Positions 12,507 through 31,953 of a stretch of 32,191 nucleotides of DNA are shown here, in pieces; the stretch's first letter is position 1; each line of letters begins with the position of its first letter. The translations under genes were made by a program, and so were the position numbers. Source of the stretch: Acetobacteraceae bacterium (lineage in GTDB: Bacteria; Pseudomonadota; Alphaproteobacteria; Acetobacterales; Acetobacteraceae); the NCBI GenBank assembly GCA_027459285.1, contig DAIDIQ010000090.1, positions 1 to 32,191 of the forward strand, read 5' to 3'. Below the pieces are notes generated by a model, which did no database searches, was not told the origin of the DNA, and saw nothing but the letters and a program-made list of their open reading frames with translations.

Positions 12507-13820
12507 TCACGCACAAACCCGTGTCAACGCATCCTCCAGCGAAAGCTCGACTCGTTCGCCGGTCAGGCGGCGCTTCACTTCCACCATGCCGTTCGCGGCG
12601 CCACGCGGGCCGACGATGATCTGCCATGGGTGGCCCAACAAATCGGCGTCGGCGAATTTCACGCCGGCGCGCTCCTCACGGTCGTCATACAACGCATCCG
12701 GCGCCAAAGCCGAATAGAGCCGCTCGGCAATCGCGTCGGTGGTGGCATCGCCCTGCTTCAGATTGAGAATAGCAGCGCGGAAAGGTGCCACGCTGTCCGG
12801 CCATTTGATGCCCGCTTCGTCGTGATGCGCCTCGATCAACGCGCCAACCAGGCGGGAGACGCCGATACCGTAGCTGCCCATGTGCGGCACCAGCGGCGCG
12901 CCGTCGGGCCCGGCGACGGTCAGCCCCATCGGCCGACTGTATTTCTCGCCAAAATAAAAGATATGCCCGACCTCGATACCCCTGCCCTGCCTTTGGCTTG
13001 CGGGCGCCACGCGCGCCCAGGCCTGCGCATCGTGCTTGTCCTCGGTTGCCGCATAAATGCCGGTCATGCGGGTATAGAATTGCTCGAGCTGCTCGGACGA
13101 GAACAAATCATAATCATCGCCGGTCCAGTCGATTGCCTCGAACGCGGCATCATAGAACACCTCGCTCTCTCCGGTCGGGGCCAGCACGATGAATTCGTGC
13201 GACAAGTCACCGCCGATCGGGCCGGTATCAGCCACCATGGGGATGGCGCGCAGGCCAAGTCGCTGGAAGGTGCGCATATAGGCCAGCATCATGCGCCGAT
13301 ATGAAACCACCGCCCCGGCATAATCCAGGTCGAAGCTATAGGCGTCTTTCATCAGGAATTCGCGTCCGCGCATCACACCGAAGCGCGGGCGCACCTCATC
13401 GCGGAATTTCCACTGAATGTGATAGACCGATTGAGGCAATTGCCGATAGCTGCGCACCGCGTTGCGGAACAGATCGGTCACCATCTCCTCGTTGGTCGGG
13501 CCATACAGCAGGTCACGCTCATGCCGGTCACGTATGCGCAGCATTTCCAGCCCGTAATCGTCATAGCGGCCGGATTCGCGCCACAAATCAGCCGGCTGAA
13601 TGGTCGGCATCAGAATTTCCTGCGCGCCGGCCCGGTCCTGCTCCGCGCGCACGATGCGCGCCACGTGGCTCAGCACGCGCAGGCCGATCGGCAGCCAGGC
13701 ATATATGCCGGCCGCTTCCTGCCGCACCATGCCGGCACGTAGCATCAAGCGGTGCGAGGCAATGGTGGCCTCGGCCGGGGTTTCCTTGAGCGTCGGGATC
13801 AGACTTCTGGACAGGCGCAT
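12507..13820 (-). CDS. proS: Prolyl-tRNA synthetase, short alphaproteobacterial type
   Basis: Charges tRNA-Pro in the cytoplasm. The 437-residue protein is the short form typical of alphaproteobacteria, without the roughly 180-residue editing insertion found between motifs 2 and 3 in E. coli ProRS. Visible parts are the N-terminus [24 protein letters not shown] at 107-112, motif 2 with FRDEVRPR at 139-146 and [13 protein letters not shown] at 151-163, and motif 3 with [10 protein letters not shown]. An anticodon-binding domain forms the C-terminal quarter. The ATG at 13820 is chosen from the family N-terminus; the open frame continues 94 codons upstream into hairpin-rich DNA and is not coding there. 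Lack of the insertion suggests any editing is done by separate proteins. Confidence 0.97.
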
Positions 13821-13866
13821 GGGTGGGGTATTTAACGAAGCCCGCGCCGGCACGCCACCAGGCGCC

Positions 13867-13886
13867 GCGCCATAGCACCATGGCGC
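13867..13886. other. Perfect 7-bp hairpin in the proS leader
   Basis: GCGCCAT and ATGGCGC flank a six-base loop 46 bases upstream of the proS start. It lies between the proS start and the terminator-like hairpin at 13898-13923. If the leader is transcribed it would form a stable stem. No function can be assigned from the sequence alone. Confidence 0.5.
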
Positions 13887-13897
13887 AAAAGCAGAGC

Positions 13898-13923
13898 AAG
13901 AAAAGCCGGGCGCAGCAGCCCGG
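13898..13923 (-). terminator. Intrinsic terminator-like hairpin upstream of proS
   Basis: On the minus strand CCGGGC, a six-base loop and GCCCGG are followed at once by CTTTTCTTGC, the layout of a rho-independent terminator. It lies 78 bases before the proS start, on the same strand and pointing towards proS. It could end a transcript from rnj or a small RNA made in the gap, in which case proS must start transcription after it, or act as an attenuator within the proS leader. Confidence 0.55.
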
Positions 13924-14160
13924 AGCCCGCGATATCTTGCCATTTTGTGCGCTGCAACATCGATTTTTGCATAAATCGAACGACTAGCAGCGTTTTTGCG
14001 CCATTTCGGCGTGACAAACGGGTCAGGGTAACTTATCAAAGAAAGTGGCCCGCGCGTGCGACGCCACGGGCCAAGTTTGGGGAGAGAACGCCAGTCAGTC
14101 ACACAAAGCGGGTCAGGGTCCGCCCTGGTCTGTCAGGATGTTTGATCAAAAGGCGGTGCG

Positions 14161-14186
14161 GCGCCAGCAAAAAAACACGCTGGCGC
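14161..14186. other. Perfect 8-bp hairpin with poly-A loop
   Basis: GCGCCAGC and GCTGGCGC enclose a ten-base loop containing seven consecutive A on the plus strand (seven T on the minus strand). A second A-run (TAAAAAA) follows on the plus strand, so on the minus strand a T-run precedes the stem. It does not have standard terminator layout in either direction, but it is part of the structured rnj-proS gap. Confidence 0.55.
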
Positions 14187-14207
14187 CCAATAAAAAAGCG
14201 ATTTGAT

Positions 14208-14260
14208 GCGGGCCTTGCCTCATTTTCAGGAAACTTGCCTGAAATTGCGGCAAGGCCCGC
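14208..14260. other. Nested hairpin with 12-bp perfect outer stem
   Basis: The outer arms GCGGGCCTTGCC (14208-14219) and GGCAAGGCCCGC (14249-14260) pair perfectly. Inside, TTTCAGG (14224-14230) and CCTGAAA (14238-14244) form a second perfect stem. TTGCC occurs at both 14215 and 14235 and either copy could pair with GGCAA at 14249, so two mutually exclusive folds are possible. On the minus strand it lies about 210 bases after the rnj stop and is followed, ten bases on, by TTTTTT, so it may end the rnj transcript. A small RNA is the alternative. Confidence 0.6.
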
Positions 14261-14470
14261 ACAATTTATGGGCAGATTGGTTTGTGCGGATCGTCAGGGC
14301 AAGCGCGGCTTTCCGCGCCAGCGTATCTGCGCCAGGAATCGCGGGCAGACGCCTTTCGCCCCCTCCGGCATGGCCAGCCATATGCCGTGGACCTCCGGAC
14401 AGGGCTTGCGCTCGACGGCACTTCCCGCCGCTTGGGTGGCAGCGCCTGGCGGCAAACCGCCTTGTTGCCG

Positions 14471-28656: not shown

Positions 28657-29886
28657 TCAGCGATCCACTTCGCCAAACACAAGGTCGAGCGAGCCGACAA
28701 TGGCCACCACATCAGCCAGCATGTGGCCACGCGCCAGCGCATCGATTGCCTGCAGATGGGCGAAACCGGTCGCGCGTATTTTGCATCGGTACGGCTTGTT
28801 GGTGCCATCCGCCACCAGATACACACCGAATTCCCCCTTCGGACTTTCCACCGCGGTATAGGTGGCGCCCCGCGGCACATGGTAGCCCTCGGTGAACAGC
28901 TTGAAGTGGTGGATCAGCGCCTCCATGCTGCGCTTGGCATCGGCCCGAGCGGGGGGGGTTATTTTGTGGTCCTGCACCTTGACCGGCCCGGGTCGCATTT
29001 TCTCCAGGCACTGGTTGCAGATCTTTACGCTCTCGCGCATTTCCGCGATCCGCACCAGGTAGCGGTCATAACAGTCACCGTTGCGCCCGACCGGTATGGC
29101 GAATTCCAGTTCGTTATATTTATCGTAGGGCTGCGCGCGGCGCAAATCCCAGGCGATGCCACTGGCGCGCAGACATGGGCCGGAAAAGCCCCAGGCCAGC
29201 GCTTCCTCCGGGGTGAAACGGCCAATATCCACCGTGCGCTGCCGCCATATGCGGTTACGCGTCAGCAAACCTTCAAGGTCATCGAGCCAGGCGGGAAAGC
29301 CCGCCATCCAGGCGGCAATCCTGTCCTCGAGCCCGGCTGGCAGATCACGGTCCACCCCGCCCGGGCGGAAATAGTTCGCATGCAGCCGCGCGCCGGAGGC
29401 GGCCTCATAGAATTCCATCAATTCCTCGCGCCGCTCGAACCCCCAGAGCGACGGGGTGAGCGCGCCGACATCGAGCGCGTAGGTGGTGACGTTCAGAAGG
29501 TGGTTGAGAATGCGGGTGATTTCGCAAAACAGGGTTCTGATCCACTGCCCGCGCTCCGGCACCTCGAGCCCGAGCAGTTTTTCCTGCGCCAAGGCAAAGG
29601 CATGCTCCTCGGCCATGGGGCTGACATAATCCAGCCGGTCGAAATACGGCATGGCCTGCATGTAGGTCTTGTATTCGATCAGCTTTTCCGTGCCGCGGTG
29701 CAGCAGGCCGATATGCGGGTCGGCGCGGGCCACGACCTCGCCATCCATCTCGAGCACGAGGCGCAGCACGCCGTGTGCCGCCGGATGTTGCGGGCCGAAA
29801 TTGATGGCGTGGCTGTCGATTTCAACCGTCTGGGTGGTGCGGCCGGATTGATCGGCCTGCGCCTCGGGGACGAGCGTGCTGCTCAT
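28657..29886 (-). CDS. nuoD: NADH-quinone oxidoreductase subunit D
   Basis: The 49-kDa-type subunit that forms the quinone-binding site with NuoB. The 409-residue protein is a separate gene from nuoC, unlike the fused nuoCD of E. coli. Conserved stretches include [20 protein letters not shown] (about 28-47), [16 protein letters not shown], the quinone-site tyrosine region [15 protein letters not shown], and the C-terminal [18 protein letters not shown] that ends nearly all family members. The start overlaps the nuoC stop as ATGA. Confidence 0.98.
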
Positions 29887-31589: not shown

Positions 31590-31666
<77 letters not shown>

Positions 31667-31878: not shown

Positions 31879-31953
31879 TGGTAGGCGGTGACGGGTTCGA
31901 ACCGCCGGCCCTCTCGGTGTAAACGAGACGCTCTACCACTGAGCTAACCGCCC
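31879..31953 (-). tRNA. tRNA-Val (TAC)
   Basis: The minus strand gives acceptor GGGCGGT with ACCGCCT (one G-T pair), D arm GCTC AGTGGTA GAGC, anticodon stem TCTCG/CGAGA with loop TTTACAC giving anticodon TAC, T arm GGCGG TTCGAAC CCGTC, discriminator A and an encoded CCA. It reads valine GUA codons and probably others by wobble. The 212 bases between it and tRNA-Asp show no gene; the pair may form one precursor transcript. Confidence 0.97.

What the first reader, a model, noticed from the sequence alone, without database searches (positions are those of the whole stretch)
13821..14470. Gene-free 650-bp stretch with at least eight strong inverted repeats
In an otherwise very compact minus-strand region, the gap between rnj and proS holds a series of perfect or near-perfect hairpins (13867-13886, 13906-13923, 13960-13979, 14046-14073, 14114-14127, 14161-14186, 14208-14260) and an 11-base direct repeat. 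In many alphaproteobacteria genes such as a methylmalonyl-CoA epimerase or a DUF1467 membrane protein lie between rnj and proS; here there are none. One or more structured small RNAs, a long proS leader, or a landing site for small repeats would each explain it.
Basis: partly seen in the sequence, partly recalled or inferred. Interest (0 to 1): 0.55.

Follow-up and report, generated by a model that had tools for sequence, protein, structure and literature searches.

The report
Diverged MmgR-type regulatory RNA beside proS
The gene-free stretch most likely encodes a small regulatory RNA of a family known from many alphaproteobacteria, followed by a probable binding site for PhaR, the regulator of bioplastic (PHB) storage, so it is a new example of a known kind with an unusual layout.

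Summary
The gap is real and enriched in hairpins (8 perfect stems of at least 6 bp; shuffle mean 2.35; 0 of 100 shuffles reach 8). They are not one structure. The centre, minus strand about 14137-14039, is a homologue of the alpha-r8/MmgR/suhB small RNA. The window copy is weak for Rfam RF00519 (26 bits, cutoff 41), but a model from copies in the same family (Acetobacteraceae in the wide sense) finds it at 44.1 bits, E 1.5e-11. Those copies have rnj upstream in 97 of 115 testable loci and proS downstream in 106 of 115, two paired stems and, mostly, the anti-Shine-Dalgarno core UUUCCUCCCU. The window copy is unusual: core UUCUCUCCCC, changed 5' hairpin. 87 nt past its terminator-like stem, at 13945-13959, a palindrome matches the PhaR/AniA motif. 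Of 116 distinct family loci, 87 have such a site downstream of the RNA and 7 upstream; in 19 of 30 loci elsewhere in the class it lies near the probable promoter. PhaR was found in 40 of 40 sampled family genomes with the RNA and 0 of 20 without. The hairpins at 14160-14261 recur only in the same-genus genome and are probably the rnj 3' end. Expression, targets and PhaR binding are untested.

The parts
14039..14137 (-). alpha-r8/MmgR/suhB-like small RNA (extent given by model R1; ends not mapped)
   Evidence: R1 cmsearch 44.1 bits, E 1.5e-11 in the window; only match in own genome at E<=0.001, E 1.3e-9; Rfam RF00519 26.0 bits at 14103-14032, below the 41-bit cutoff
14114..14127 (-). remnant of the 5' hairpin (CAGGG/CCCTG, 5 bp); best-fit stem of 8-10 pairs in 119 of 124 family loci
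   Evidence: swap test over relatives
14079..14088 (-). counterpart of the 10-nt anti-Shine-Dalgarno core: UUCUCUCCCC instead of UUUCCUCCCU (3 of 10 differ)
   Evidence: core sequence as quoted in PMC12559287
14046..14073 (-). terminator-like stem of the small RNA, followed by CTTTCTTT
   Evidence: fold; compensatory pair in relatives, columns 87-127, GC in 51 and CG in 39 of 99 rows, not paired in 9
13945..13959 (.). probable PhaR (AniA) operator, TTGTGCGCTGCAACA on + strand, contains core YGCRNYGCR
   Evidence: matrix score 20.6; next best site in the window 13.0; motif text in PMC12542648
14008..14015 (-). GTCACGC element about 57 bp before the PhaR-like site, conserved in part of the family, role unknown
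14207..14261 (-). long hairpin, possible rnj transcript 3' end; recurs in the same-genus genome with two pairs changed on both sides
   Evidence: no other copy in own assembly
14160..14187 (-). 9-bp hairpin next to it, also present in the same-genus genome
13906..13923 (-). 6-bp GC hairpin with a T-rich tail upstream of proS, not conserved in the same-genus genome
14471..16120 (-). rnj (ribonuclease J), upstream neighbour
   Evidence: Pfam RNase_J_b_CASP 129.2 bits
12507..13820 (-). proS (proline--tRNA ligase), downstream neighbour
   Evidence: NCBIfam PRK12325 703.5 bits

Best explanation
The gap encodes a trans-acting small RNA homologous to alpha-r8 (MmgR of Sinorhizobium, SisA-D of Caulobacter), read on the minus strand from about 14137 to a terminator near 14039. 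Shown by comparison: homology, the same position between rnj and proS in most testable loci of the family, two paired stems in relatives, and a conserved CU-rich core. Inferred: the RNA is transcribed, bound by Hfq, and its CUCCC core pairs with ribosome-binding sites to repress mRNAs, probably in carbon-storage metabolism. Also inferred: PhaR binds the palindrome at 13945-13959 and ties the locus to PHB status. What that 3'-side site controls is not known. The hairpins at 14160-14261 are a separate feature, most simply the 3' end of the rnj transcript.
For: RF00519 is the best Rfam match of the gap (26.0 bits, E 0.0045) and this is its best place in the own genome. Of 14 relatives matched by blastn at the RNA, 13 also match RF00519, 5 at or above cutoff; same-genus L004 does not. 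Model R1 finds the window copy at E 1.5e-11 and a match in 208 of 249 family genomes at E<=0.001. Synteny: rnj upstream in 97 of 115 testable loci, proS downstream in 106 of 115 (seven pairs of loci are the same DNA). Stems: arms of one sequence pair better than arms swapped between sequences, 8.47 v 7.74 of 9 pairs (maximum of 200 swaps 7.92) and 6.86 v 6.26 of 7 (maximum 6.38). PhaR-like site downstream in 87 of 116 distinct loci, background 0.033 per kb. PhaR and phasin genes in the own genome, with two PhaR-like sites (scores 18.7 and 11.3) flanking CTTGAC before one phasin gene.
Against: The window copy is below the RF00519 cutoff, its core differs at 3 of 10 positions, its 5' hairpin is mostly lost, and its fold alone is ordinary (z -1.2; 24 of 200 shuffles fold as well). 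No sigma-70-like promoter was found. No expression data. The T tract after the terminator stem is interrupted. Phasin leaders read by eye showed no strong pairing with the core, so no target is supported. Apart from L004 and the window, the counted loci were selected by a pattern containing YYCTCCCY, so the core's conservation is partly by choice. 29 of 116 loci have no PhaR-like site downstream. For Caulobacter sisA-D, PMC12559287 reports no conserved motif upstream.
Confidence: 0.82

Rival explanations
1. The small RNA gene is decaying in this genus: a former alpha-r8 gene whose core and 5' hairpin are degenerating, with little or no function.
For: Core changed in both species of the genus, 5' hairpin reduced, model scores of 44.1 and 25.7 bits against 70.8-102.4 for the main copies of 58 other loci.
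Against: Between the two species the RNA body and the terminator stem stay aligned while the region next to rnj does not; CUCCC and the PhaR-like site are kept.
Confidence: 0.2
2. The conserved elements form a regulated proS leader or proS promoter region, and the PhaR-like site controls proS.
For: proS follows in 106 of 115 testable loci; the site lies about 125 bp before the proS start in the window.
Against: Of 9 loci without adjacent proS, 6 keep the site core at the same distance (two of the six are the same DNA) and three do not. The RNA has its own terminator-like stem.
Confidence: 0.15
3. The hairpins are mobile small repeats (REP or MITE type).
For: One long near-perfect inverted repeat, 14207-14261.
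Against: It matches only itself in its own assembly and recurs at the same place in the same-genus genome with two compensatory changes. Assemblies from short reads can lose repeats.
Confidence: 0.04
4. A PhaR-controlled promoter at the site makes a further transcript, for instance one antisense to the small RNA that acts as a sponge.
For: Conserved GTCACGC and GATTTTCTTGCG elements at near-fixed distances from the site; an RNA sponge of alpha-r8 RNAs is known in Caulobacter (PMC12559287).
Against: No recognisable -35/-10 pair was found in either direction by eye; little is conserved after the site in the 42 rows aligned.
Confidence: 0.12

Closest known systems
MmgR (alpha-r8) of Sinorhizobium meliloti
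   Same: Small RNA with a CU-rich core and a PhaR/AniA motif at the locus (passages of PMC8401924 and PMC12542648)
   Different: Located between rnj and proS; PhaR-like site lies 3' of the RNA instead of in its promoter; core differs at 3 of 10 positions in the window
SisA-D (alpha-R8) of Caulobacter crescentus
   Same: 10-nt anti-Shine-Dalgarno core downstream of a weak hairpin, then terminator (passages of PMC12559287)
   Different: One detected copy in this genome; different neighbours; core altered; no sponge partner sought
suhB RNA element, Rfam RF00519 (PMC1273637, passages)
   Same: Conserved unstructured core, short 5' helix, terminator
   Different: Window copy scores 26 bits, below the 41-bit cutoff
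AbcR (alpha-r15) RNAs
   Same: Partial homology to RF00519 and CU-rich anti-Shine-Dalgarno motifs (PMC7143759, passages)
   Different: Described as 114-120 nt with three stem loops and two motifs; the loci here show one core and two stems. Not compared by sequence here

Membership tests
alpha-r8 / MmgR / suhB small RNA (RF00519) | Rfam gathering score of 41 bits | tested here: not met
   Window 26.0 bits. Among relatives 5 of 13 matches reach it
alpha-r8 / MmgR / suhB small RNA (RF00519) | exact 10-nt core UUUCCUCCCU, unpaired | tested here: not met
   Window UUCUCUCCCC; 106 of 117 distinct loci have the exact core, in a set partly selected for it
alpha-r8 / MmgR / suhB small RNA (RF00519) | homology through the lineage's own copies at the same locus | tested here: met
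   R1 model E 1.5e-11; same rnj-proS interval
alpha-r8 / MmgR / suhB small RNA (RF00519) | short 5' helix | tested here: inconclusive
   Only 5 bp (14114-14127) or a GU-rich alternative in the window; best-fit stem of at least 8 of 10 pairs in 119 of 124 loci
alpha-r8 / MmgR / suhB small RNA (RF00519) | Rho-independent terminator | tested here: inconclusive
   Strong stem 14046-14073 but interrupted T tract; the terminator scan did not list it
alpha-r8 / MmgR / suhB small RNA (RF00519) | neighbouring FGase gene in most species (PMC12559287) | not tested
   Neighbours here are rnj and proS. FGase was not searched; PMC1273637 says the element has no specific neighbours
alpha-r8 / MmgR / suhB small RNA (RF00519) | transcribed, Hfq-bound, pairs with mRNA leaders | not testable with these tools
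   No expression or binding data; presence of Hfq was not checked
PhaR/AniA operator | palindromic core YGCRNYGCR | tested here: met
   13945-13959 contains TGCAGCGCA on the minus strand; motif from PMC12542648; its AT-rich arms were not scored
PhaR/AniA operator | bound by PhaR and controls transcription | not testable with these tools
   PhaR gene present in own genome

The most novel reading that the evidence does not exclude
In the Acetobacteraceae the PHB-sensing repressor PhaR acts on the alpha-r8 small RNA locus from an operator placed 3' of the RNA gene, by looping, roadblock or a PhaR-controlled second transcript, whereas other alphaproteobacteria keep it in the promoter. In the window's genus this rewired circuit is combined with a changed pairing core, hence possibly a changed target set.
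Probability: 0.3. Interest if true: 0.62.

Novelty: new variant of a known kind. Interest (0 to 1): 0.42.

Why it matters
It puts a conserved small-RNA gene into a gap that recurs across a bacterial family, links it by position and by co-occurrence to PhaR and PHB storage, and gives a testable case of an operator that appears to sit on the 3' side of a small RNA instead of in its promoter. The genus with an altered core could show which targets depend on the exact anti-Shine-Dalgarno sequence.

Tried and rejected
Rfam at gathering thresholds found nothing in the gap. Mobile repeat: not supported, single copy in the assembly. DUF1467 remnant in the gap: no usable tblastn match (best E 0.20). 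Hidden gene: none of six ORFs has a family match above cutoff. RNAalifold on the plain MAFFT alignment A1 missed the 5' hairpin, whose arms shift between clades, and proposed a weak three-pair helix instead. Model R1 used an RNAalifold structure of A2 with 9 pairs and without the proposed 5' stem, so its scores rest mainly on sequence. The 5' stem was therefore judged by a best fit and by the swap control, not by a phylogeny-aware test. An exact TTGTGCGNCGCACAA search in 40 genomes at first argued against a PhaR regulon: 6 of the 8 sites lie at small-RNA loci already found, a seventh (G008) beside what looks like a diverged copy, and the eighth (G001 C25) in what looks like coding DNA, by eye. 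The matrix scan of phasin and phaR loci reversed that. Pairing of the core with phasin leaders was looked at by eye only and gave no clear support. The second RF00519 hit in the own genome (19.3 bits) was read and looked like coding DNA by eye; the third (14.9 bits) was not looked at.

Limits of the PhaR evidence. The first matrix came from palindromes at the small-RNA loci and was run only on 30 phasin and phaR loci; its 17 best sites of 91,101 positions lie on the upstream side of the phasin or PhaR domain matches (the two phaR ones judged from coordinates, and one phasin start, L197, is uncertain). The second matrix was built from those sites, so the two are not independent. The published motif is the independent check: core YGCRNYGCR at +100..+185 in 101 of 131 loci, not dereplicated, against 246 of 2204 random 85-nt segments. 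The 30 class-wide loci are those laid out for the best RF00519 scores and include close relatives (for example L155/L158, L172/L176, L164/L167/L170), so that sample is biased and not independent. The PhaR co-occurrence may reflect one or few losses in a single clade; that these genomes are acetic acid bacteria is my guess from their size.

Rows dropped. L018 (blastn match elsewhere), L011 and L142 (core block does not fit the pattern) are not in the 131 loci used for counts; seven pairs are identical DNA, leaving 124 distinct; ten near contig ends were left out where a flank was needed, giving 117, 119 or 116 in different calls. L142 was given to model R1 and gave no match.

Full report
Observation. 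The 650-bp interval 13821-14470 between proS and rnj holds no gene that the family models recognise in the six ORFs scanned. It is richer in hairpins than chance: 8 perfect stems of at least 6 bp against 2.35 in shuffles, 0 of 100 shuffles reaching 8; for stems of at least 8 bp there is no excess. Whole-gap folding z-scores are -5.6 and -5.2. All seven listed hairpins are there, one of only 5 bp. The proS frame is open up to 14102, but the proS model starts at the codon at 13820.

Which family. NCBI places these in Acetobacteraceae and Roseomonadaceae. I use Acetobacteraceae for the whole group.

Homology. In a blastn search of 60 genomes, own genome included, 16 had a match. Apart from the own genome, 14 matched at the small RNA (13 of them within window 14034-14097, L004 over a longer stretch) and one (L018) matched elsewhere. 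In a sensitive Rfam scan of the gap the best family was RF00519, suhB/MmgR, at 14103-14032 minus, 26.0 bits, E 0.0045, cutoff 41. Of the 14 relatives, 13 match RF00519 at 32.5-48.7 bits, 5 at or above the cutoff; L004, from the same genus as the window, does not.

Distribution. Most titles are genera that I know as members of this group (recalled; only Acidisphaera and Roseicella were looked up), or unresolved Acetobacteraceae, Rhodospirillales or Proteobacteria; one says Solirubrobacterales, but that record has the same locus sequence as L015 from a same-family genome. rnj lies upstream on the same strand within 1.2 kb in 97 of 115 testable loci, and proS downstream within 0.7 kb in 106 of 115 (130 loci without the window, before removing identical pairs). 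Covariance model R1, from 51 sequences, finds the window copy at 14137-14039 minus, 44.1 bits, E 1.5e-11, and has a match at E<=0.001 in 208 of 249 family genomes. The weaker of those matches were not inspected. RF00519 itself is widespread in the class: 158 of 289 genomes at E<=0.001 with stricter filters, under which the window's genome has no match.

Anatomy. In relatives the RNA has a 5' hairpin, a conserved GTGTGACTGGCG, the core TTTCCTCCCT and a GC-rich stem with a T tract. The core is exact in 106 of 117 distinct loci, TTTCCTCCCC in 7, TTTTCTCCCT in 2, and different in the two members of the window's genus; the pattern that selected most loci fixes part of it. This agrees with the alpha-R8 description in PMC12559287 (passages read) and the suhB description in PMC1273637 (passages read). 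For both stems, arms of the same sequence pair better than arms swapped between sequences (8.47 v 7.74 and 6.86 v 6.26 pairs), and one terminator pair is GC in 51 and CG in 39 of 99 rows, unpaired in 9. Relatedness was not modelled, so this is support and not proof.

The window copy. It has a 4-bp duplication (GTGTGACTGACTGGCG), the core TTCTCTCCCC, and a 5' hairpin reduced to CAGGG/CCCTG. Its sister in G001 (L004) has TTTACTCCCC. The fold of the window RNA alone is ordinary (z -1.2). Because two defining features are not met, I call it a diverged homologue that probably works like MmgR, not a clean family member.

PhaR-like site. A palindrome of the TTGTGCGNCGCACAA type lies about 140 nt after the start of the conserved block in many loci. 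A matrix from 40 such palindromes, scanned over 91,101 positions in 10 phaR and 20 phasin loci, placed its 17 best sites on the upstream side of the domain matches. In eight phasin loci the sites come as pairs 55-59 bp apart, some with a weaker second member, around a TTGA-type -35-like box. The palindrome matches the core YGCRNYGCR of the S. meliloti PhaR motif, from a paper whose binding assays included an mmgR promoter fragment (PMC12542648, passages read). With a matrix from 14 phasin/phaR sites, 79 of 124 distinct loci score at least 13 at +100..+180, against 0.008 hits per kb elsewhere in these loci. At a threshold of 10, 87 of 116 distinct loci have a site downstream and 7 of 116 upstream, background 0.033 per kb; 29 have none downstream. 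In the window the site is 13945-13959, score 20.6; the next best in the window scores 13.0. In 30 RF00519 loci from elsewhere in the class, 27 have a site of at least 10 within 400 nt; in 19 it lies at -46 to -77 from the core, near the probable promoter; background 0.044 per kb; three have none, and none of the 30 has rnj or proS within the roughly 1.5 kb held on each side. So the association looks old, and the 3' position looks like a trait of this family. The Caulobacter paper, however, reports no conserved motif upstream of sisA-D and does not mention PhaR.

Co-occurrence. PhaR (PF07879) was found in 10 of 10 genomes chosen first, in 30 of 30 others chosen from those with R1 matches, in 10 of 10 with weak R1 matches (E 7e-6 to 6e-4), and in 0 of 20 with none. 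The 20 are those the output listed, of 41 without a match. Their genomes are 1.9-3.7 Mb, and a single clade-wide loss could explain the pattern.

What the site does is open. It stays in 6 of 9 loci that lack adjacent proS, two of the six being identical DNA, and is missing in three, so control of proS is not the favoured reading. In part of the family GTCACGC sits about 57 bp before it and GATTTTCTTGCG about 7 bp before it. I could not recognise a promoter there.

Other hairpins. 14207-14261 and 14160-14187 recur in L004 and in no other of the 60 genomes at the blastn threshold. The long one has two pairs changed on both sides with pairing kept, and three positions unpaired in at least one species. 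In the own assembly it matches only itself. The most economical view is the 3' end of the rnj transcript; this was not tested. DUF1467, which lies between rnj and the RNA in L004 (PF07330, E 1.1e-17), is not found in the own assembly, which is 93.67% complete.

Literature. A search for suhB with Acetobacteraceae and small RNA gave no paper. In these searches of the held library I found no description of this locus in the family or of a 3' PhaR site, but the main survey of the family's distribution (Lagares 2016) is not held, so this is not a claim that it is unpublished. PMC12559287 states that alpha-R8 occurs in all Alphaproteobacteria except Rickettsiales. Papers were seen as passages only.

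Noticed in passing
window 13821-14470; L004: The DUF1467 gene found between rnj and the small RNA in the same-genus genome is not found in the own assembly.
   Followed up: yes
window 14008-14015 and related loci: GTCACGC about 57 bp, and GATTTTCTTGCG about 7 bp, before the PhaR-like site are conserved in part of the family; no explanation.
   Followed up: partly
L020 (same DNA at the locus as L015): A contig titled Solirubrobacterales carries rnj at 69% and proS at 75% identity with the small RNA between them; its locus is identical to that of a same-family genome, so the title is probably wrong.
   Followed up: partly
L054 2968-3063: A second weaker match to the small-RNA model (31.7 bits) about 1 kb from the main one.
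   Followed up: no
L142: Genome G008 seems, by eye, to have a diverged copy with core TTTCCTCCCC but without GTGTGACTGGCG, followed by the perfect palindrome; model R1 did not match this locus.
   Followed up: partly
phasin loci L187, L189, L190, L191, L192, L194, L195, L197: PhaR-like sites occur as pairs 55-59 bp apart around a TTGA-type box (CTTGAC in four of eight) upstream of phasin domains.
   Followed up: partly
window 31593-31666 and 31882-31953, minus strand: Two tRNA genes.
   Followed up: no
window 29691-29705: A weaker PhaR-like site, score 13.0.
   Followed up: no
window 12507-14102, minus strand: The proS reading frame has no stop codon up to 14102, across part of the small RNA region; the homologous start is at 13820.
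   Followed up: partly
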